Origin: Lethocerus indicus
Lineage: Eukaryota > Arthropoda > Insecta > Hemiptera > Belostomatidae
DNA: 64,000 nucleotides
Assembly: GCA_019843655.1 (NCBI GenBank)
Contig: JACDQD010000004.1
Coordinates: forward strand, 27,601,872-27,665,871
Direction of reading: 5' to 3'
The notes beneath the pieces are model-generated. The model was not told the origin of the DNA. It saw only the letters and a program-made list of their open reading frames with translations, and did no database searches. Numbering within the stretch: the stretch's first letter is position 1; every line of letters begins with the position of its first letter. The translations under genes were made by a program, and so were the position numbers. Of this stretch, positions 9,545 to 62,573 are shown piece by piece.

Positions 9545-9982
9545 CGCAATTATAAAATATTTTTTTTATTAACAGTACACTATGTACAAGATAGAAAGCA
9601 GTCTTCGGTCCAGTTTTGTCATCGCCAACAGTCGTCAAGTCGGTCAGTGATCGTCGGTCAAGTTCGACTAGCTCCTGTCGAGTCCCATCAGTCCGTCGAG
9701 GTGGAAAAGGTTTTTTTAATTTATTTATAAATACAAATAATAATAGAAAAAAACGTTAAATGAAATACAATAAATTATTAAATACGAAAAATAAATAATT
9801 TTCACTCGGGGAGCTTCTCGTAAGCCGGTGGACTCTAAACCGGTTCCGATTGACCTGTTGTTGTGACCCGGTTAGAACAATGGTCGATGAGGGGGATGTG
9901 TATGTGTGAGTGGATGTGAGGGGGCTGCCGCGAGTGGAGTGTCCCTGAGAGGCGTGCGTCACGATGAGGGTAGCTGAGGGGG
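9545..9982 (-). other. 3' untranslated region of gene A
   Basis: This runs from the stop at 9983 to the minus-strand AATAAA at 9570-9565. It contains a UUAUUUAUU AU-rich nonamer (9798-9790), further AUUUA pentamers, and then a GAC-dense segment (9702-9598). The plus strand of that segment has about 13 GTC triplets in roughly 105 bases. The cleavage site is inferred. Confidence 0.6.
9565..9570 (-). terminator. Polyadenylation signal of gene A
   Basis: AATAAA on the minus strand, about 415 nt past the stop and followed by an AT-rich stretch. It is the most plausible end of the gene A transcript. Confidence 0.55.
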
Positions 9983-11451
9983 TCACTCCTGCTTAGGGGC
10001 GTAGGCCCTGTAGGCGATGTCCTGGGGTTCCATGGACCGGCCGTAGTGACCGTGCTCCTCGCTGTAGTGGGGGTGGGCGACCACCTCGTAGCTCTGGGTG
10101 GAGTGCTTGTTGCCGAGCAGCTTCTGGAGGCCGATCAGGCCACTGAGGACGAGGGCCAGCTTGCCGACGATGAGGGCCTTGAGGGCGAGCAGGGCCAGGG
10201 CGCCGAGGGCCAACGGGATCAGAGCGGCGGCCTTCAATTTCAACATCAACAGGAAGGGCAACAGCATCTTCAGCTTCTTCTTCTTGCCACGGGCTAAACG
10301 AAAAAAGCGGCTATTAAATTGTTGATCGGCGCGTGTCGTAAATTAAGACGATTAATTCGCGGCCGCCTAATTGGACAATATTTTCACGGCCCGATTGTCG
10401 AGATGCGTTAGATGGAAGTCGATAACGGTTCGCTTTTCTTGCTCTGATTGATCTTAATGTAAACGATTAGGCGTCATTTATTAGCCTCGAATTTTTAATT
10501 GCATTAATGTTCCCTATCTATCTAAGAAGAGTTATGAGATTAAGCAGCCTCTAATTCTAAGCTACGAGTTGAGTCATTTAGAGCATTTGAATACGTCATA
10601 TGAACATTGGGAACTTTCTTCCGATTTAAAGTTACTTCGATCAATTCCGGTAATTATTTTTGTTTCAATAATAAATAAGATTCACTTAATCGAAAATACT
10701 ACTTATTACGCTAACGCGACTGGCGGATTAGGTATTTGCGTCTTGTTTGTCATGTTTTAACTGAAAACAGGCTGTTTGTAGAATATTAATTACAACGCGA
10801 CTTTTTCTGAGTATATCAATAATCTATGGGTAAGTATTTTCCATTTTCATATCCGTTATATAAAATGGCGTTTCTTAGTAATTTTTCAAAAAAAGTTGTA
10901 CAGTGCTTTCGCGGAGTTTTTAAACCAAATTTTAAGATTTACAATCTACATCGCTTGGGCAGTCCGACCGACGAACGTTACTTACCTTCATCGAGGGACT
11001 TGCGAACTTCGTTGATGGAAGATTCGGGGACTTTAAGTTGAAGGGTGTGGCTCTGGAGGAAGCGGGCGACACGGTCGACGAGGAGGGATTCGACTTGGGC
11101 GTCTTTGTCATCGGCGTCCTTGGGTAGGGAGGCGTCCAGTTCGGCTTCGGAAAGGGCCCTGGCGTTGAGTCCTCTGGAGGCGGCATCGCTCTCGGTCCTC
11201 ACCAGGGAAACACCGTCGGTGATCTCGAAGTCCTCGGGTCTCCTGAGGGCCTTGTCGACGAGGGTGAGCGCTCTCATTTTCAGGCATAGGGACATGTCCT
11301 TTTCGCCGCATCCCTGGATGAACTTGTAGGCCGTTTCAATGCTCTCCTCCAAGAGGCCCGGTGATTGTTGTTGGGGTGTCTCGCCTTGGGCGGCGGGGAA
11401 CGCGCTGGCGGCCGCGACCGCGCACAATACGAAAGCTAATGCGACGCGCAT
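9983..11451 (-). CDS. Osiris-family protein (DUF1676), AYRAY-tailed (gene A)
   Basis: Coding exons 11451-10986 and 10293-9983 give 258 residues. The 692 bp intron is phase 1 (GAAG|GTAAG donor, TTTAG| acceptor). The ATG at 11451 starts a clear signal peptide (MRVALAFVLCAVAAASA, about residues 1-18). Cys 48 and 56 sit in GCGEKDMSLCLK, followed by FEITDGVSLV (75-84), the N-terminal Osiris signature. ASLPKDADDKDAQVESL, VDRVARFL and SHTLQLKVP (about 107-141) lead into RGKKKKLK (157-164). The hydrophobic DUF1676 region is about 165-215 (LIPLALGALALLALKALIVGKLALVL). The tail is His/Tyr-rich (SYEVVAHPHY) and ends with DIAYRAY, matching the AQXLAY-type motif of the family. Osiris proteins act in the secretory and endosomal system of cuticle-forming epithelia. 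It pairs closely with gene B. Family assignment is very secure; the exact Osi number is not assigned. Confidence 0.95.
10294..10985 (-). other. Intron of gene A
   Basis: A 692 bp phase-1 intron joining GAT GAA G to CC CGT GGC, which restores an Ala-Arg-Gly junction. It is AT-rich with no other feature. Confidence 0.9.
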
Positions 11452-11535
11452 GTTTTTAGCTTAGCCTATCTCGGTGCGTGTGTCCGTACTCTGCTGTGAC
11501 CGGGTGTGTTGTATCGTGTTGGTGCCGGACCGCCG

Positions 11536-44769: not shown

Positions 44770-45018
44770 TTACAGAAAAATATTTATTTTTTTTGTTCGA
44801 TTTTTTACAGCAGAATACCAAGCAAAGTACTAATATTTACAACACATTTCTCAACGACGCACTCACAATCTATTCTCATCTTTGGCATCCGGTCGTAATT
44901 ACCGCTTATAATTAAAATAAATAAATAAATATTTGTCGGTCGAAACGGTCGGTAGTGTCGACTGGGTTTCGCGTGTCGAGAATGTCAATCGGTCATAAGG
45001 ATAAATGTAAGGCGATGT
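44770..45018 (-). other. 3' untranslated region of gene B
   Basis: From the stop at 45,019 the transcript crosses a GAC-rich stretch (44,998-44,936; seven GTC triplets in about 65 plus-strand bases). It then runs into overlapping AUUUA pentamers (44,934-44,914). A minus-strand AATAAA at 44,788-44,783 is the likely polyadenylation signal. The order of elements differs from gene A but the elements are the same. Confidence 0.55.
44783..44788 (-). terminator. Candidate polyadenylation signal of gene B
   Basis: AATAAA on the minus strand, about 230 nt after the stop. Confidence 0.4.
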
Positions 45019-48000
45019 CTAGGAGTGGGTTTGGCCGGCGGTGTAGGCCCTGTAGGCGAGGTCGGAGGCTTCGATGTTCCTTCTGTGTCCGTGATGCGGC
45101 ACCTGGACCACCTGGTAGGCGGCGTCCTGGTCGAAGCCGGGGCTGAACAGCCGCCTCAGCCCGAGAATGCCGGCCAGCACCAGCGCCAGCTTGCTGATGA
45201 TCAGCGCCTTGCCGGCGAGGATCGCCAGGGTGCCCAACTTGAGCGGCACCAGGGTGCTCACCATCACCAGCCACATCAGCAGCAGGGTAGTCAGAGTCCT
45301 CTTCTTCTTTCCACGTCCTGGGGGACAAAGTTACTTAAATTATCAGGCAATTCGTAGGCTAAACCGATATCCTAATCGTTTAACTACTCGAGATGATCTC
45401 GAATTTTACGGCGCTCAAATCTAGGTATGCCCTTTATTTTATAATCAGTTCATTTATAAAATGTCGTCTATTCTCTCTTAGATGATTCCGTCGGTATTTC
45501 CGGTATAATTGGAAATTTCTGCTTGTATGACATCAGCTGAGACGCTGTAGTATGCAGATATTCAATTATTGAAGCGTATACAAGCAATACAGATATATGT
45601 TCTAATATTTGGCCAGTTCTTTCCTAATCTTAGGATACAATAATCTTACATAAAACTTGTTTATTTCATGGGTACGTTAAAACGCATCGTAAGAATTATT
45701 TGGATCGAATGAGAATATAATAGCTAATAAGAATGAACGATTAGCGAAAATAAGAATGACGTAAAATTTAGAAGCATGCGAATCTGTTAATTGATAAAAC
45801 CTATTTTGGCTATGTTTTCTCGTTTCGTTCAAAAGTGTTGTCAATCTAATTTGATAACTGAGCTATCAGAAAGCTATCAATGTGAGTTAATATAGTGAAA
45901 AATAAGGTACTGGAGGTGGACAGTGACAGAAGATATTGGTGTATAGTGAATTATTAAAGTATTACTTGCGTGGCGGAAATGTTAGTGGGAGCCTTTCGAA
46001 AGGAGGCGGGGGAAGGGAGCGCCTGCTAACTACTTGATGAATTCCGATTGCCCGCCCCTAAGTAAGTGTCTCGCGTTTCGAGCCCGTGTTTGTAGCAGAG
46101 CCAATCCCGTTATGCAAAGTACAGTTGAGCCCATTTAAAGGGGGGACCGGGCAACCGGAGCGAATGCTAATGCCTCGGGCAATTGATTGCTTTCTACGTA
46201 TATTAGTTCATCAAGGGGGTTTTAAAGTAGCAGTAGAACTAGATGTGTGTAATGTGAGATGCATCAAATCGGTTTTCCAAGTGTGCGTTAATCTGTAGTG
46301 TTAGCTTCTGAATTAAGAAGCGACAGGAGGGATAATAAGCGCGCTAGTATTCGCAACCGATTAGGGTTGAAAAGTAACAAAAAAGAAGTCTTTTAGAACG
46401 GGTACGCATTACTGTCAAGCGCTTATCCCCCGAGTGAGTACGAGATAAAATGTGGTCCATTTAAACTCGGCCAAAGAATGCGAAGAGTGGAAAGATCCCT
46501 GCAGCACAGTAGGATACGTACGTGCCTTTTCTGACTGACAGACGTGGACGCATTACAGGACTCCTAAGCCTCCAGGTCACGAGATCCCTCGGCAGACTCA
46601 GTTTTGAGAAGACTATGTATTATTTCGGTATTGTTGAAAGCCCGAAGAATAAGAATTTTGGCACACAGTAAGTATCGAACAGTGAAATTCTTAATTGGGG
46701 TAAATAAAATCATAAACAGTTTATCACTAACTATTCATATCAGAAGGATTTAAATGATTATGATCACATTAATAGTCAGACCAGAAAGTCACAACATATA
46801 GTAGTACAAATGATGTAGTAGTAAATGAAAACTATAGTTATTAAATTGTGCCAAATAAGGACAAATTTTGGTTATTTTATGCGTTACAATAATAAATTAT
46901 TATTATTATAACAGATTCTTATTTGAGATTTTAGAAAGAATGTGTTCGTACAAGAGTGGTCCATGTAATTTATAAATAAGTACCTCCTCAAGACTAATGA
47001 AATGAATTACTAATCCGACAGTTTTTTAATCATATTTTTTTGGCTAATTATATCAGTTCTGGTCAAGAGAAAGTCATGTACCAGTTGCGTCGGATTCAGA
47101 GCTGAGCGTTTCGAGTGTCAGAGTCGGGGCAGTGCGGCTCCAATACGGAATGGAATTCTGCCGTGAAATTTAGCCGTCCTCTAGCCATTGTCCACCTCGG
47201 CGGTCACCCTATCGGACCGTTCACTATGGAATAATGAGGTCCACTGCACGCCAACCTCGCGTCTTCCACATCATATCCACAATTATGTCCGCTCTACAAC
47301 TGGCAGATGCGTTTTTCTGAAGGTTTCTCTCGCCGTGAGTACCCAACGCGAAAACCACATGGTGGGACATTGATCCCCGCTCGGATTTGAGGGAAACACC
47401 CCTAAGGAACATACACGGGGAGAAACCAAAGGCTTGAGCGAACAATGAGATAGTTCGCGCCTTAATTATTAAAATCCAGTTGCCAGGCGGTTTGAGAGCA
47501 AAACAGAAAAATAAAAAAGCTATCGATCCCTGTCGCAGACTGATGGAAATGAGTTCTGAATCCCGAATATAATTTCCTATAGGGGGACGAGGACGTGAGC
47601 ATTGTACAAATAACAATATCGGACCGAGAGCCAATAGTCGATAATGGGTTGGACCTTCTTCATCAAGCTGAAAGAGAAGGCCAAAAATATTAAATACGGA
47701 AAAAAGTCAAATTTTGAGGAAACACGCATAACAGGACCGACAAACGAAAATATCCATTTCATTGGAACAAATGAAGGGGTGGAGATAAGGGAAAATTTCA
47801 GTACCTTCGGGCAATGTTACGGGTGAAGTAATCAACACAAAACACTTCAAAGACAATGAGTTAATTAGGTTTTAAAGTATATTGTATGTTGTTATTTTAA
47901 AATAAACTAGATCGAGAGCTGATAGGAATATTATTTTTTGGATAAATTCAACAGTTGTATTCCAATTATTCCCCAAATTTCTATCGGAATACTGTCATAA

Positions 48001-50001
48001 TTTCTCCCGCAATACTCCTACGCACTTTGGTTTTCTAATTGGATCACATCCCTCATGATTTCTAATTGTCACTTATTAACATTTCGTCCGTGTCCGAACT
48101 GTCTGGCGTTGGCTGCTCCAGTTAGTCCCACCGACTGCCCATTATCAGAGCTAAAGGGCGAATAAAGATTGTATTTTTTTAAATAACATTAATCAATTCC
48201 GATATCTGTATGTGCAGCCTAAAATAGTCTGAAACTACGGTGAATTCCCACGATGAATTCTCTCATTCGCAAATTTCCAAATTGACGCTTCTGTGAATGT
48301 ATCAGATGAGAGAAATGAAAAATGTTTACTGAAATGATTATTTCCTGGTCTACGAGGGTTGGTGGGATTATCGCAGATATGATTAACGGAGGTGAAATCT
48401 TTACCACCATTTCCATCTAACCTTTCGATACAAAGGATACCGTTATGTCGAAAACGGTCTACCAATGGACCGAAAACGCCGTTGATCCGAAATTAAATAC
48501 TATATCTTTGACGACATTAAACCGAAAACTACATTGATCATTTCGATATTCACCTCACGGTTGTTTCGAAATATAAGAAAACATTAAATCTTAAATTATT
48601 AAATTGAAACGACAACGTTTTTTCGATAACGATTAAGAGAATGTTAATTATGATCTGTTTCCTACCATTAAAAAGTTATATTTCCACTCGGTTATTATTA
48701 AATTGATGTTTTTCTAGTACGCCCTTTACACGCGGTTAAGCTTTTGAACACCTTACAATGACTGTGAAATATTTACATTTCCCCAATAGCGTCAATGATC
48801 CATTGTTAAGTGGTTGTAATTAGAGTTGACAAAGAGAACGTGTCTATTGGGCCCAGGCTTATAATGGCCTGAAAGCGATCCTATTACTAAGGCGGTTATT
48901 ATAATGCAGATAATGGTTTGTGGCCGGGGGGCTTTAAAGCATTTTTGCGTGTCAATGGGCCCTAAGCGAGTCGCTTTGTGGACGGCGCGCGCGAAACAAT
49001 CGGTTTCGGAACGCATAACTTAAAAGTATCTCGAGAAATATTCTTCCCTACCGGGAGTACCATTTATATAATATTTACATTATGCTACTATCGCGTGATC
49101 CACGCGATCCGTCCGATTCGCGGGGGGCATTCCTCGAATCGGCCAATTAGGCTGTTAACCCCGATTGGACAAAATTAAGATTCGGTACAGTTTTACGGAT
49201 TTTTCAATCTATTTTTAATCGTTTGTACGGTGGGGCCATTCGAATATTACGGTGTTTTCTAGTCAACTGTATACAGTAAAACACTAACATGGATACATGT
49301 ATATTGACCGACTAATTATACCGCATAAGTGGGTTTACTTCCTCCAGCCAACAAAGCAGAATACAGTACATGTCCTACATGTTTCTAAATTATTGTATTC
49401 CTAAATTATTCGCTCCGATACGGATGTGCGAAACTCGAAAAGTAGGCGGTAGTTACGTTTATTGGCCCCGGAATAAAAACAAATACTAAATGCGGCCGGA
49501 ATTATTATAATAGATAATGTCATATTATACCGCACCTTCTTCAACACCGCTGCCGAACAAGTCAAGATCGGAAAGTTTGACCTGAATGGAGTGGGTATTG
49601 ACAAATTGTGCGGCTTTGTCTTGTATGAGGTTGTCGAGGGCTTGATCCTTGTCGCCGATGGACCTGGGTAGGGACTGCTCGATCTGGGCCTCGGTGAGGG
49701 GCGGCCTCTCCTGTTCGGCTCCGGCCACCTTGACCAGCTTGACGCCCTCGAGGAGGCTGAGGTCGGTGGACCTGGCGGCCCTGTCCAGGCTGGCGATCAG
49801 CTTGAGCTTGAGGCAGGAGGCGGAGCCGGCGCACTGTCGGTAGTGCCTGTAGAGGGCCGCCAGGAGGCCGGCGGGAGTCTCGGGGGTGGCGGCCGCCCTC
49901 GGGCCGCCCTCCAGGCTGTTGCCCCCCGGGTGGGGTGCGCTGCGCCCCGCCGCCCCCAACACCGCCAGTGCCACTAGAAGACAGACTGCCTTGGACTGCA
50001 T
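45019..50001 (-). CDS. Osiris-family protein (DUF1676), AYRAY-tailed (gene B)
   Basis: Coding exons 50001-49536 and 45317-45019 give 254 residues across a 4,218 bp phase-1 intron (GAAG|GTGCGG donor, CCCCCAG| acceptor). The ATG at 50,001 is chosen because the signal peptide (MQSKAVCLLVALAVLGAAG, residues 1-19) starts there; the open frame runs further 5' into the promoter. Cys 57 and 63 lie in YRQCAGSASCLKLK, then LSLLEGVKLVK. QSLPRSIGDKDQALDNLI and FVNTHSIQVKL (about 109-143) match the same positions in gene A. RGKKKR (157-162) precedes the hydrophobic DUF1676 region (about 167-212, with LAGKALIISKLALVLAGILG). The tail VVQVPHHGHRRN ends in DLAYRAY. The Ala/Gly-rich insert at residues 20-45 and high third-position GC in exon 1 stand out. 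The exons match in strand, phase and junction (EEG|RGKKK), which supports joining them despite the distance. Confidence 0.9.
45318..49535 (-). other. Intron of gene B
   Basis: At 4.2 kb it is six times the equivalent intron of gene A at the identical residue position. It contains GC-richer blocks at about 45,960-46,620 and 47,090-47,640 and no coding sequence I can support. Intronic regulatory elements are possible. Confidence 0.8.
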
Positions 50002-50020
50002 CCTTGTTTGCTTGTTGCCT

Positions 50021-50061
50021 GACTGACTGATGCCCGCTCTGGGACCGCCCGCCCATTTATA
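50021..50061 (-). promoter_or_regulatory. Core promoter of gene B (TATA plus initiator)
   Basis: Minus-strand TATAAA (50,061-50,056) lies 33 nt upstream of the A in a consensus arthropod initiator TCAGT (50,030-50,026), which is followed by a second overlapping CAGTC. This predicts a 27-nt leader to the ATG at 50,001 and strongly supports that start. Confidence 0.75.
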
Positions 50062-53000
50062 CTCCGCGCTCCTCATCCCCCACCCCCGCCAATCACGGAG
50101 CCCTCCTTCTGTAACACAAGTAGAGCGAGTACCTCCGCGAAAATATTCGGCACGAAACGTAAAAAACCGCCTTGTAATGTTTCGATTGTCCTACTGTCAC
50201 TACCTAAAATAGGAGTTATACATACATTTATTAGTTGAATAATTAAAACAATTTATTTTTTGTATCGGTATCTAACGCCATGGCAGCCAAAAATAATTCA
50301 ACTTAATATAAACTAGAGAAGATTCCTATACTTTTCAAGAAGGATAGTGGCTTAAAGAGCTCGGTGTAGGTAGCAAAAGTTTCCATATTTCTACTGGTAT
50401 TGGGCCAAACCTGGACGCCTTCCAAGAAAAGAATCACCGTCTGTCCTACCTGCTAGGAACTTTTCTTCGACCGATTAGATCTGGAGCCCTTCCTTGGAAG
50501 TTCGCAAAATATTTGGTATATATTATGATTTTTCTTTCGGTTATTTCTCCCGCATCTAGACCGTTTATTATCTACCTATTACGCTGTCTACTGTCAGTAA
50601 AGTGGTAAAAATTAAAGAAGAAACCGGCCTTGGTTAAGAACAAATAAAGAGAGGAAACGCGAACGTCATTCCCTGTTGTTTCCAAACTCGAGCAGAATAT
50701 AAAACGTACAATCCACTTAAATTCCATTCTTTCTATTGTGCGGGCGGATAAATAACCGGACTTGAGACTTATTTCTATAAACAATAATTATTACATTTAA
50801 ACCCGATAAGGTCCTGGTTAAGTACTTTTATTCGCCCAAAAAATACAAGCGGGTGTGCACAATTTACCATAGAGCATCTTAATATTTAAACCCATTATCA
50901 TTATTATTATTAAATAAAACCGTTGGACATTTTCATTGAATTGACTATATGTCAGTTGTTAGGTTCAAATTAACTTCCTGTATGTCCTGTGTAATGACAA
51001 TAACTACTGTTCCTGTAAATATATCTGTTTTTGTAGAGAGCAAACTAGTAATGTCATAATGTCAAAACCCTGTGAGAAAAATTCACGTGTTCGTAATAAT
51101 TTTGCAGTGAAATCGATTTAATAAAAAATATAAGTAACTGCCTCTTAATGATTTTCAGTCAAATTTCATAGAATAGGACCCCAAGTTGTACTTGTTTTTA
51201 CTGAGATATATTTATATGAGACAGAATTTTCGTATTACGCTGCAACCAAGTCACTTCTTATCCTAAACGTATTCTCGTAACCTGTATATTTGATGAATTT
51301 AACTGGTTTTCAATGAAATATATTAGATTATATAGGGTTCGATTAGTCGTCTTTATTAACAGAGTAATGACTGAAAAACACGGTTTCGCTTGTATACTTC
51401 TGGTCGACCGTTCTAGTCGTCTGTCTTCTGATTCAGTCGATCGTTATTAGGAAAATTGGAGACTGTTTAATCTGTCTTCTTTAAAATTGCAAATAACCAG
51501 CTTTCGCGGCCTATTATGCTAAAAATTATGCAGTCCCTTTGTGTTCATACAACGATAGAACTATCCATAACTATCTCCTCGAATACCCATCTCCTTTCCA
51601 TATCGAATTTCTTTCTTCACGGCAAGTAAATTGTTAGCGGAAACTCCGAGGGCCCGCTATCATACTGATGCTTGTTGTTTTTTCGTTAATGTGGATATAT
51701 TTGTACGTTTTAATTAAGTTCAACTAATTTCAACTAATTAATCCTCCGCGACTAGGATTTTAGATAATTCAGGGAAATTATTTCCTTTCTGCATACTTTA
51801 TAAAACCAAACATTATTTTTTTGATGTTACTCTTATAAATTAGTAGAATTAAATAATGACTTAAACAATTCAATTTAATATACCAATGATTATAAAAGTT
51901 TTAAACAATTGCAAGTGCCACATTTGTGGCGCTATAAGAAGTTATAGTGAAATTTTTTGAATACAACACTACATTTAGCATAAAATTACTAATTCTGGTC
52001 CAGATCAACATCGCGATGTTATTGCAGCCATAAAGGTATGTTTCTACTGCGTAACAAATGTTGCTAATTCACAGATTTCAAGTTTCAGGTTGAAATCACA
52101 CGAACAGATTATACCTTTCTTCGGATAGAACACCTCGTTAGCCGCCGAGAAGAGAGGAACGAACTGCTAAAATGACCGTTGTTCCTACGTGTTATGGTTT
52201 CATGTTCAATTCATAGGGTCGAGTTTCGTGGAGCCTAATTGTATAATTACAACTGTAATAAGGTCAAAATTTTATCAAGCCAAATAATTAGTGATGCGCC
52301 CTGAGTTTTTCAGAGACTCCTTTGTCTTCGGAATTTTTCCTACCTTGAAGGTCGTGAAGACTGATGGACCGACCAGGGTAGACAAGTTGTTCGTGGAAAC
52401 ATGAGATATAAAATGAAATTAAAAGAAAATGTACTATAACACAATACTATAAATAATATGCAAAAGACTATAAGTTATAACGTTTTAACAACATATTCGA
52501 CTCGCTTGTTAACGAATCCTTGCAATCGTAATTTAACTTTACCACTTCTCATCCTTGGATTCTGAAAAACCTTATTCATTTCGCGTTACATATTCTTTTA
52601 AATGTTTTCCTATACAAACTCATAGCGGTTGTTTTGAAACTTCGCTATGAACAGTATTTCAATGTCGGAGGAATAAAAATGCAGCCCTCCACCAAACCTC
52701 TGTGAACAACGTCATCAGAGTATTGTTTCCTGGCAGAAGAATCTCAGCTTGAACGTTTTTGGCCATAAATACATTTGTCGATCTGTAGCTAAGCTGAATC
52801 TATTTTTGCATATTATTTCGTTGCATACTATTTACAGTTGAACAAAGTAATAAGAAACGAAAAGTTGAAAGCCCTATGCATTTTTCATTAGAATCGGCTT
52901 CGTACCTTAGCGGTGCAAGAATCTAATGGATGTATGACCATTCTCTCGATCCCATTACGGCCTAGTACCTACTGAACAATACGAGTTATGAACTCCGTAC

Positions 53001-59200: not shown

Positions 59201-60965
59201 CGATGAAGGAGTACTTATTTTAACGAGTATGCAAAATATTGCAGAATTGATTAAGGAAGTAACTGCAGTAGCACAATTAGAATTTATCATATTTTGTAAT
59301 TTAGTTCAATGGCGTAGATGAGGCAGGATAGATGGCAGCATGGGTCGTTAGGAGACGTCACTAAGGAATGAAAGTTAGATCCTTCGTATCCTACTAGATG
59401 GCGCAATGTATTTACGGATTTCAGAACTCAAAAAGTTAACTCGCACATAGATAAGAAATACTAAGATAAAACTATGTACAATAGTATATAGAGGGTACGA
59501 CAAATGTACATAATGAGAATGTGGTTTGTACTACTTACTCATTGGTAGCCGATTGTTTTTTTTTTGTTTTAGAAGTAAAATTGAAATTTCCTTACTAATC
59601 ATCACTAACAACAATAACATAATTTCTCAGTATTTTGAAATAGTAGTATGATCCAATGAAATACAAGGAAAGGAAAATTTAATAAATACTAAAAGTAAAT
59701 TATTTAAACAAATTGTACGGTTTGTTCATACGTTAAACATCAGTGGTGACATTTTATTTGAATTATCGAATATACGAATTTTTATATTCAACTATGCTGA
59801 ATGTTATAAAAGGATACGCAATGACCAAACAAATTTTGGTGAATAAAGTCATCATTTTTAGGGATTTGATTTTGTATTTCTTTACCCAATAGTATATTAA
59901 ATAAATACGTCCTCGTTTTAATTTTGCGTGTATTGCCTATATGGCCCATTGGTTTTTGTTTATTCATTCCATTTGAACATTCACTTACAATTTTTTCTCC
60001 ATTATTTTTGTTTATATTGTTACAACATGTAAATGTGCCTAACTACACTGCTGAGAATAATAAGGTTAGTATAGTTAAGAGCATAGTATTTTGAAACTTT
60101 CCTTAAACATTATATTCATGTTTAAATTAAATGTATTTTGCAATGCATTTTTCGCCGATACTAAAGCTCTGTTTTCTTGGATAGGAGGAAGGGTTATTGA
60201 GCCGTGAACAAACATTGAAACTCGTATATATTTCAAGAATAATATGTTATTTATTTGTTAAAAATACATGAAAAATCAAAGTGCAATGGAAGTAGAATTC
60301 ATTAGTTGACCTTACAGCAATTAGAAGAGAATTTTATAAATATAAGCAGTTAATAGATTAAATCAATGTCTTCAGTCCAAAATGTCCTAGCACAATGTGT
60401 TGTGTATAAAATTACAAAACATTGCTGGTCTTACGTTCATTTGTGATGTCATAATAATTGGGTTAGTAAGATTACGAATAAAATGTACACCTTGTCATTT
60501 CACACTTCAAAATAACAATTGAAATAAATACGGAGATAGCATTTAAACTGAAATTGCACTATTTCTATCAATATGTAATTCTTACTAGCCATTTTACAAA
60601 GACCATTCTTCGGTATACAAATGTTCATTTGTCACTGAGGTAGCCAAGTCAATCTTCACGTGTATTCAAGTATGACGTCTTATGAGGTCCGTATGACCGA
60701 TTCACATTCATCGTAATATGTCACTACATTTTAGTCATCATTTTGTCTTCATTCTGTAGACAATTCATAAGGCACTTTTTCCAATGTAATTCTTTTAAGC
60801 ACTACTCGGAAAACACGTCTGTTAATTTGTTCAACTTGAACAATACGCCCGTTGTACGTTCCGTTATGGTCAGTGGGTGTATTTTGTCGTCAGACCGCTG
60901 TTTCTCTCGCGTATTGTCTGTTCAGTTAGGCCAATAAATAATCTAACAGTAATATTTTAACATGA

Positions 60966-62275
60966 TCAGTAGTCTGTCGCTGTCCTTGAACTTAATTAAT
61001 TTATCAGTTACGTTAATAGTCAATCTAAGTAGTGGATTTCAGTTCTTCCAGTCATTTTGTTGAGTCATTAAGTCACTAAGTGAGGTCGTCAATGCTTCAG
61101 TTTGTTATATTTCTAAAGTAGTTCAATTTAGTCTGTCGTGTCGATTTTTTAAAATTATGTCAGTGGCAGTTTGTCGAGTCATGTGTCAGTTTAGTTGTAT
61201 TGCATTGACTTATGATTCTGTATAAGGTGAGTGATCTGTCAATCTGTCCTCGCAGGTCATGTCAGAGTATGGTTTTGTGATAGCAGTGATAATGTTCAGT
61301 CAAGAAACTGTTCGTTTTATTATTGGAGCTCGTGTTTCATTTTTATAATAATGTATTAGTAGTCTTTAGTCGCGGTTTGTTGTAATTCAGTCGTTTATTC
61401 GTGTAAGTCAATTTCATTAAATTGTGTCAATATTAGTCATCAATCAGTTGCTATCGTATCGCAACATGTGTCCATGTTCCAGGTTGATTACGTCAGTTCC
61501 TTTCGTATTTCTCTAATTGTAGCTGTATCGATTATTTGGCGAAGGTGGAGTCAAATGTGTCAATAGTCGCTCAGAACTATATCGGTAGGATTCTGGCATA
61601 AGAAAAAACAGTAATATATTGCATTTGAATATTTGTATTTTACACTCATAAATTCCAGTATACAGTTGTAAAGTCGATTTCAATACAGTCGAGAAGTATA
61701 CAGTGAAATTACAGTTACAATCAAGAGATTTACAAGTTAATGTCAGATGTTGAGTTTTCAGTAAAGAGAGAAGTGATTGTTAGTCACGCGTCAGTAGAGT
61801 GTTGAGTCGGGTCAGTATAAAAGGCAGTAGTAACTGGAAGCGTTTGGGTGAAGTCGTGTAAAATTATCAGCATGGTACAAAATCAGTGGTCCCCAACCAG
61901 CAAGCGTCAGTCACAGAAAGAGTTTAAGCTCACTACAGAGTAAGTAGTAGTCTCTAAGGTCTTACAGTGTCAATCATATCAATGACCGAAGTGCAAATTA
62001 GAATCTGAAGGTAAAGAGCTGAAGCGATCATCATTATCAACCTAATCTTTGGTTTTCGCATCGCCCCGCTCCCACTAGACGAGCGGGACGCCTTTTAAAT
62101 AGTCAGTGTTAGTCAGTTTTCTGTCGAACGTGTTAGTCGGAATTTACACGGGGCCACGGATTACAGTCGAAACTGTGAGCTAGACCGACAGTTAACTATT
62201 GAATAATAGATCTTTGGTTCATCCGAGTCGTCCGTCTGTTGTTGGTCAGTCCCATCAGTGAGTCCATCAGTCGAG
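60966..62275. other. Strand-asymmetric TCAGT/GTC-rich tract
   Basis: I count 20 TCAGT pentamers on the plus strand in about 1.3 kb, against little or no ACTGA on the same strand. GTC-containing words are also very frequent. The tract is not a regular tandem repeat because the spacing varies widely. It shares the 12-mer AGTCCCATCAGT (62,248-62,259) with the gene A 3' region (9,681-9,692). The two likely readings are the long 3' untranslated region of a minus-strand gene ending near 62.5 kb, or a plus-strand non-coding transcript or initiator-rich promoter region. Confidence 0.6.
61816..61824 (+). promoter_or_regulatory. Possible plus-strand TATA box
   Basis: A textbook TATAAAAGG inside the TCAGT-rich tract. 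An ATG follows at 61,873 with a 23-codon frame that crosses a good donor, GTAAGT. No protein family is recognised, so this may be a non-coding promoter or chance. Confidence 0.3.
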
Positions 62276-62428
62276 TTAAATATGTAGAAAGTCACCGCGA
62301 TTAAGCTATTTACACCAAGTGTCTGTCTCCTCAAGCTTGGCGGGTCACTAGCTAGGCGTTAATTAACCTACATTAGAAGGAGACGAGGTCCAGTGAAGAC
62401 AATAGATAAATAGAAGAAAAAAAGAAAT

Positions 62429-62437
62429 AATAAATAA
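62429..62437 (-). promoter_or_regulatory. AU-rich nonamer, candidate 3' UTR element
   Basis: Minus-strand UUAUUUAUU, the same nonamer seen behind genes A and B. It lies about 60 nt past the candidate terminal exon at 62,496-62,573. Confidence 0.35.
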
Positions 62438-62495
62438 CAAATCAAATAACAAAGCCCCGACGGAGCTTTTATATAAATATTTTAAATAAAATAAA

Positions 62496-62573
62496 TTAAC
62501 ATGGCTGAGTATTTCTTTGTACTGGTTCGAATGTTGATCGAACTGTCTGTACCTCTCGTGATGTAGCTCCTAC
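62496..62573 (-). CDS. Candidate terminal exon of a further minus-strand gene
   Basis: A strong minus-strand acceptor (TTATTTCTTTGCAG|) opens a GC-neutral segment that ends as AT-rich DNA begins at TAA 62,498-62,496. Read in phase 0 it gives 25 residues. Phase 1, the phase used by every intron in this cluster, gives about 29 residues ending slightly further on. A third reading from GTAG at 62,570 gives an Osiris-tail-like HHERYRQFDQHSNQYKE but then runs into AT-rich sequence without a prompt stop. The frame is unresolved and no DUF1676 core is visible before the right edge. The 3' context (AU-rich nonamer, GAC-rich tract) resembles genes A and B. Confidence 0.25.
   Translation of the reverse strand, partial: VGATSREVQTVRSTFEPVQRNTQPC

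What the first reader, a model, noticed from the sequence alone, without database searches (positions are those of the whole stretch)
60966..62275. 1.3 kb strand-asymmetric TCAGT tract
There are 20 TCAGT words where one or two are expected, almost none in the opposite orientation, and no fixed repeat unit. TCAGT is the arthropod initiator consensus; in the other direction the tract would be an ACTGA-rich RNA. Irregular spacing argues against simple satellite origin. It could be a repeat-degenerated 3' UTR, a protein-binding non-coding RNA or a scattered initiator platform.
Basis: seen in the sequence. Interest (0 to 1): 0.75.

Follow-up and report, generated by a model that had tools for sequence, protein, structure and literature searches.

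The report
Strand-biased GAC array behind Osiris genes
A 1.4-kb stretch of insect DNA packed with short one-way words (GAC/ACTGA when read on the other strand) lies downstream of an Osiris gene, and weaker versions lie in the same direction behind several sister Osiris genes, which suggests a shared, so far undescribed 3'-end RNA control element.

Summary
60966-62275 holds 20 TCAGT and 0 ACTGA (about 1.5 expected), with no tandem unit and one genomic match. TCAGT is one face of a broader signal: AGT/GTC on +, ACT/GAC on -. The initiator reading fails. The key lies outside the window: an Osiris (DUF1676) gene on the minus strand stops at 64057, so the tract (60870-62327) lies 1.7-3.2 kb downstream in that gene's direction. 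In 264 kb, the five other segments scoring >12 are all on the same strand, and 4 of 5 follow an Osiris stop within 3.5 kb (permutation p 0.0002-0.0004). Of ten further Osiris genes, 3 show it in sense, 0 in antisense; the strongest is a + strand gene. Ten cuticle-gene flanks show none. 6 of 9 segments end within 50 nt of A[AT]TAAA, against 14% of random points; the main tract does not. Best reading: a multi-copy GAC/ACUGA array in extended Osiris 3' UTRs, probably bound by an RNA-binding protein. Transcription, binder and function are inferred. 8 of 13 cluster Osiris genes lack it; no other species could be compared; Osiris specificity is unproven.

The parts
60870..62327 (-). main GAC/ACTGA array (the TCAGT tract on +); in the direction of the Osiris gene it lies 1.7-3.2 kb after the stop codon
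   Evidence: trinucleotide segmentation (1733-3191 nt after the stop); GAC 67 against 16.9 expected and ACTGA 22 against 2.0 over 60840-62460 read on -
62062..62090 (-). stable GC-rich hairpin (12 pairs, one bulge) inside the word-free gap of the array
   Evidence: -20.9 kcal/mol, z -2.44, 4 of 200 shuffles as stable
9598..9700 (-). short GAC array about 0.3-0.4 kb after the stop of the Osiris exon that ends at 9986; ends 26 nt before an A[AT]TAAA
   Evidence: score about 22; distance
9986..11460 (-). Osiris (DUF1676) gene with exons 10981-11460 and 9986-10342, followed by the 9598-9700 array
   Evidence: Pfam 4e-22 for the first exon; phmmer and Pfam for both
45022..50190 (-). next Osiris gene, exons 49528-50190 and 45022-45330; only a weak GAC peak at its end (44875-45184, partly coding; no segment >12)
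   Evidence: Pfam 1.9e-17; GAC peak 11 per 250 nt
60250..60255 (-). first A[AT]TAAA on the minus strand after the whole array, a possible 3' end of a long transcript; unproven
   Evidence: pattern positions

Best explanation
The tract is minus-strand, non-coding sequence belonging to the extended 3' UTR (or transcribed 3' end) of the Osiris gene whose stop codon is at 64057-64059, just outside the window. Read as mRNA it is an irregular array of roughly 65-100 short GAC / ACUG / UGAC words that cannot pair with one another, so the RNA stays open. Shorter arrays of the same words, in the same sense, lie behind several sister Osiris genes, often directly before a poly(A) signal. Most likely mechanism (inferred): the array is a multi-site platform for an RNA-binding protein that recognises a GAC-containing word and so tunes stability, translation or localisation of Osiris mRNAs. 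Shown: words, asymmetry, position, direction, recurrence. Not shown: transcription, protein, effect.
For: Strand asymmetry beyond shuffles. Osiris last exon at 64060-64440 on -, followed by TAG. The five other segments with score >12 in 264 kb are all on -, none on +; 4 of 5 lie within 3.5 kb downstream of an Osiris stop (permutation p 0.0004, or 0.0025 with strand fixed; 0.0002 and 0.003 after correcting one stop). Further set: of 10 other Osiris 3' flanks, 3 have a sense segment >12 (29.0, 13.4, 12.1), 0 an antisense one; the 29.0 belongs to a + strand gene, so the word follows the gene's direction. Among all 64 trinucleotides GAC has the largest mean local sense excess over 22 Osiris flanks that exclude the main gene. 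6 of 9 segments end within 50 nt before A[AT]TAAA against 14% of random points. Both strands of the tract fold less well than locally shuffled sequence (+1.96 and +3.25 kcal/mol per 150 nt; 20 control segments mean -0.48, largest +1.43). 0 of 10 cuticle-gene flanks have a segment >8 in either sense.
Against: The main array starts 1.7 kb after the stop, with nearer poly(A) signals at 229 and 278 nt, and its own end is 613 nt from the next signal, so it need not be in that mRNA. 8 of 13 cluster Osiris genes show no sense segment >12 within 3.5 kb (3.0 kb for one), and 7 of 10 further genes show none. One independent hit (12.1) barely passes a threshold chosen after seeing the data. One segment (93369-93530) follows no recognised Osiris stop closely. 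For GAC the sense maximum exceeds the antisense one in only 12 of 22 flanks (8 the other way), and in total counts over these flanks GAC (503 against 433) ranks only sixth. GAC against GTC in the first 1.1 kb: 149/124 and 127/100 for the two Osiris sets, 101/118 for cuticle genes. The strongest sister array (L031) contains a short tandem repeat GACGACATGACC. The model was trained on the main tract; random genome gives more weak hits than the simulated null (7 segments of 8-10.7 in 50 kb, both strands, besides a microsatellite, against 18 per simulated Mb of one strand). No RNA data, no second species.
Confidence: 0.5

Rival explanations
1. A neutral patch of cryptic simple sequence: local slippage and biased mutation built a polar AGTC-like composition with no function.
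For: All four rotations of AGTC are enriched, as an eroded tetranucleotide array would give; trinucleotide composition explains most of the TCAGT count; one sister array contains a short tandem repeat.
Against: Little phase coherence, no excess of repeated 7- to 12-mers, no tandem array in the tract, one genomic match; recurrence in one sense behind several Osiris genes.
Confidence: 0.22
2. An independent long non-coding RNA, from either strand, that carries the array as protein-binding sites and is not part of the Osiris mRNA.
For: 1.7 kb gap to the stop codon with earlier poly(A) signals; on + there are AATAAA signals at 62429, 62485, 62490 and donor-like sites inside the tract.
Against: AATAAA is common in this AT-rich DNA; the sister arrays lie behind Osiris stop codons in mRNA sense.
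Confidence: 0.17
3. A DNA-level element: a cluster of directional binding sites for a chromatin or transcription factor within the Osiris cluster.
For: Nothing specific here; short repeated words could also be sites on DNA.
Against: Ordinary factor sites need not share one orientation over 1.4 kb; here the orientation follows gene direction, also for one + strand gene.
Confidence: 0.07
4. A scattered platform of arthropod initiators (TCAGT) on the + strand.
For: 22 TCAGT in 60841-62400.
Against: 0 of 22 have RGWYV at +28, one TATA box that is not spaced for a TCAGT; non-initiator words also enriched.
Confidence: 0.02

Closest known systems
FMRP target words (GACR, ACUK, WGGA)
   Same: GACR 27 against 9.0 and ACUK 51 against 13.8 expected in the main array read on -; the three words are named for FMRP KH domains in the introduction of PMC8903291 (one passage seen).
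   Different: WGGA is not enriched (10 against 12.1), and GACR is not favoured over other GACN in the main array (27 of 67 GAC). No binding data.
RNAs with many scattered short protein-binding sites (S. pombe meiRNA for Mmi1, NORAD for Pumilio, Gomafu/MIAT; all recalled, from no call)
   Same: Many copies of one short word in one sense, irregular spacing.
   Different: Different word; here apparently downstream of a protein-coding gene. The Pumilio word is near expectation in the main array (1 against 0.4), though 3 against 0.1 in the 133992 array.
m6A motif DRACH (recalled)
   Same: GAC core; DGACH 42 against 9.9 in the main array.
   Different: GGACU is not clearly enriched (2 against 0.9), and 18 of 67 GAC are preceded by C, which DRACH excludes.
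SR-protein GACGAC sites (SRSF7/9G8; recalled)
   Same: GACGAC 3 against 0.3 in the main array, 4 in the L031 array.
   Different: Most words in the main array are ACUGA/UGACU rather than GACGAC.
STAR-protein word ACUAA (HOW/QKI; recalled)
   Same: ACTAA 8 against 2.0 in the main array.
   Different: 0 or 1 copy in each of the eight sister arrays tested.

Membership tests
FMRP-type 3' UTR target element | enrichment of GACR and ACUK | tested here: inconclusive
   Both exceed expectation in the main array, but GAC- and ACT-containing words do so generally; GACR share of GAC is not raised.
FMRP-type 3' UTR target element | enrichment of WGGA | tested here: not met
   10 against 12.1 expected.
FMRP-type 3' UTR target element | binding by the insect Fmr1 protein | not testable with these tools
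   needs CLIP or a binding assay
Osiris 3' UTR feature | downstream of an Osiris stop codon in gene sense | tested here: met
   main tract and 4 of 5 other cluster segments; 5 of 13 cluster genes and 3 of 10 further genes carry one, 0 of 23 an antisense one >12
Osiris 3' UTR feature | part of the mature mRNA | not testable with these tools
   no RNA data held
Osiris 3' UTR feature | specific to Osiris genes rather than 3' ends in general | tested here: inconclusive
   0 of 10 cuticle-gene flanks, but these are only 0.9-1.2 kb long and few; genome-wide pattern counts did not complete
Satellite or tandem repeat | head-to-tail unit or many genomic copies | tested here: not met
   one match in the genome (which skips very common words)
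Arthropod core promoter array (Inr with DPE or TATA) | DPE at +28 or TATA at about -30 of TCAGT | tested here: not met
   0 of 22; one TATA box, none correctly spaced
Known structured RNA family (Rfam) | match at gathering score | tested here: not met
   0 matches in the window

The most novel reading that the evidence does not exclude
The Osiris genes, a dosage-sensitive, syntenic, insect-specific family, carry a family-wide post-transcriptional code: polar arrays of GAC/ACUGA words at their mRNA 3' ends, read by one RNA-binding protein, so that many clustered genes are switched off or localised together; the 1.4-kb tract is its extreme form.
Probability: 0.25. Interest if true: 0.75.

Novelty: new variant of a known kind. 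Interest (0 to 1): 0.5.

Why it matters
The Osiris cluster is dosage-sensitive in flies (Tpl locus) and its synteny is widely kept among insects (PMC3284338 and PMC9870157, abstract starts and passages seen); why the block is kept together is posed as an open question in PMC3284338 (passage). A shared RNA word at the 3' ends would be a concrete, testable handle on joint regulation. I found no report of such a shared word in full-text searches pairing Osiris terms with UTR, post-transcriptional and long noncoding RNA; 'UTR' does not occur in the main text of the two Osiris papers looked at. One listed paper names osi9a as a putative miR-190 target (PMC6219076, passages seen). The other papers listed were seen as listings only.

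Tried and rejected
Initiator platform. Tandem or eroded tetranucleotide repeat. Known RNA family or tRNA (0 matches). Protein-coding tract: the longest stop-to-stop frame within the tract is 88 aa. A + strand spliced lncRNA with an intron in the word-free gap 61975-62100 was considered (donor-like AAG|GTAAAG) and set behind once the Osiris gene and the minus-strand hairpin were found. miRNA sponge: considered from memory only, no test. Motif fitting gave a low-information [GAT]TCAGTC[AG] with about 70-100 sites. Homologous proteins: the search with one Osiris exon returned none. Word searches in the literature (TCAGT, UCAGU, GUCAGU, each with other terms) held 0 papers; one search held 0; one search listed two m6A reviews, not read.

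Corrections made on rechecking: the reading frame of four flanks (L029, L033, L036, L038) was picked wrongly, so their stops were off; with the frame set by the Pfam match the outcome is the same (3 of 10 sense, 0 of 10 antisense >12) and L038 scores 13.4 instead of 12.3. The stop of one cluster gene was taken at -535 and is at -600; the permutation p changes from 0.0004 to 0.0002 (strand fixed: 0.0025 to 0.003).

Rows dropped or limited: 11 further Osiris flanks were wanted, 10 fetched (C4:24212208 left out for lack of letters). The GAC-rich end of L029 (score 11.0, below 12) was cut because its translation looks like a decayed LINE reverse transcriptase (my reading). L025 1728-2115 (37.8) was dropped as a CACTCTCT microsatellite. 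Two of the 13 cluster Osiris exons (-61451, 127263) are weak calls. The threshold of 12 was chosen after looking; at 8, segments occur on both strands (10 on +, 19 on -, in 264 kb), and a simulated 1 Mb of one strand gives 18 above 8, none above 12. The cuticle flanks assume that the matched exon is the last one.

Genome-wide pattern counts (ACTGA triplets, and the reversed word as control) were asked repeatedly and never answered, so the genome-wide frequency of such arrays is unknown.

Full report
What is there. The signal is therefore carried by trinucleotides: AGT 75 and GTC 58 on +, 11 and 6 for their reverse complements. A search over 5-mers with at least three different bases, at all positions, puts this tract first (score 8.96; 40 shuffled windows reach at most 5.21). 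A segmentation gives 60870-62327 (in-sample).

It is not a repeat. Tandem Repeats Finder, phase analysis, repeat finding (three two-copy families of 14-18 nt in 60500-62500) and the count of repeated 7- to 12-mers show no unit. A DNA search of the 427-Mb assembly finds one match only (the search skips very common words).

It is not an initiator array. 0 of 22 TCAGT have an RGWYV element at +28, and one TATA box exists, not spaced for any TCAGT. Words that do not fit the initiator (TAGTC 12, AGTCG 11) are enriched as well.

Context. The window lies in an Osiris (DUF1676) cluster. I fetched 80 kb to the left and 120 kb to the right. Osiris exons were found by phmmer with pieces from the window and by the Pfam model over the genome (41 exon matches, seven of them on the apparent duplicate contig C144). 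All but one of the exons found in the 264 kb are on the minus strand. The gene at 64060-66912 ends with a stop at 64057-64059, so the tract lies 1.7-3.2 kb downstream of it in its own direction. In that direction the words read ACTGA, GACT, TGAC: GAC 67 against 16.9 expected and GTC 9; ACTGA 22 against 2.0.

Recurrence. A trinucleotide model trained on the tract was run over both strands of 264 kb. Above 12 it gives six segments, all in the same strand sense as the tract: the tract itself (126), -29806..-29472, -8798..-8562, 9598-9700, 93370-93531 and 132569-132817 (window coordinates, negative to the left). Of the five besides the tract, four lie within 3.5 kb downstream of an Osiris stop; random placement with random strand does this in 0.04% of 20000 trials, with the strand fixed in 0.25% (0.02% and 0.3% with one stop corrected). 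As a further test I fetched 2.4-kb 3' flanks of ten other Osiris genes, five on + and five on -: three carry a sense segment above 12 (L031 29.0, L038 13.4, L035 12.1) and none an antisense one (correcting the frames used). L031 belongs to a + strand gene, so the word follows the gene's direction rather than the chromosome strand. A model-free count agrees in part: of 64 trinucleotides GAC shows the largest mean local sense excess over 22 Osiris flanks without the main gene (6.68 against 4.32; next best difference 1.64 against 2.36), but its sense maximum exceeds the antisense one in only 12 of 22 flanks, and in total counts GAC ranks sixth. L031 has 22 net GAC in 250 nt, part of them in a short tandem repeat.

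Position. Segment ends lie 1, 26, 21, 18, 21 and 48 nt before the next A[AT]TAAA in six of nine cases; the other three are 150, 703 and 613 nt (the last is the main tract). Random points on the minus strand fall within 50 nt in 14%.

Controls. Ten cuticle-gene (PF00379) 3' flanks of 0.9-1.2 kb have no segment above 8 in either sense. Five random 10-kb stretches give none above 12 except a CACTCTCT microsatellite, but seven weaker ones of 8-10.7, more than the simulated null leads one to expect. These controls are small, and the cuticle flanks are shorter than the Osiris ones, so Osiris specificity is only suggested. 8 of 13 cluster Osiris genes and 7 of 10 further ones have no segment above 12.

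How it may work. Both strands of the tract fold less than locally shuffled sequence, as expected when complementary words are absent, with one stable hairpin at 62062-62090 on the minus strand (-20.9 kcal/mol). An open RNA with many copies of a short word near a poly(A) signal is most simply a binding platform for an RNA-binding protein. The GAC and ACUG words recall FMRP words (GACR, ACUK; introduction of PMC8903291, one passage seen), but WGGA is not enriched and GACR is not favoured over other GACN, so this is a lead, not a membership. Everything after 'the words are there, in this sense, behind these genes' is inference.

Weak points. The main array does not sit directly at the end of its gene: poly(A) signals occur at 229 and 278 nt after the stop. 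Most Osiris genes have no strong array. The model was trained on the tract and the threshold set afterwards. No other insect could be compared; the assembly has no relatives in the set held here.

Noticed in passing
window 170410-170856 (right flank, L020): A frame that looks like a neuropeptide receptor (GPCR; my reading of the translation, not tested). NPFR1 is reported to lie by the Osiris genes in the insects examined except Hymenoptera (PMC3284338, passage), so the insect may be non-hymenopteran.
   Followed up: no
G000 contigs C144, C100, C99, C133: C144, C100 and C99 hold matches equal in score to those on C4, C9 and C10 at a constant offset (C133 one such match to C3), so the assembly probably keeps duplicate haplotype contigs.
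   Followed up: no
window 93370-93531 (right flank, L004): GAC array on the minus strand not close behind any recognised Osiris stop (nearest 5.5 kb); perhaps an unrecognised gene end.
   Followed up: partly
window 62062-62090, minus strand: GC-rich 12-pair hairpin in the word-free gap of the array.
   Followed up: partly
window 11500-45000: A 33-kb stretch between two Osiris genes in which no Osiris exon was recognised; other genes were not searched for there.
   Followed up: no
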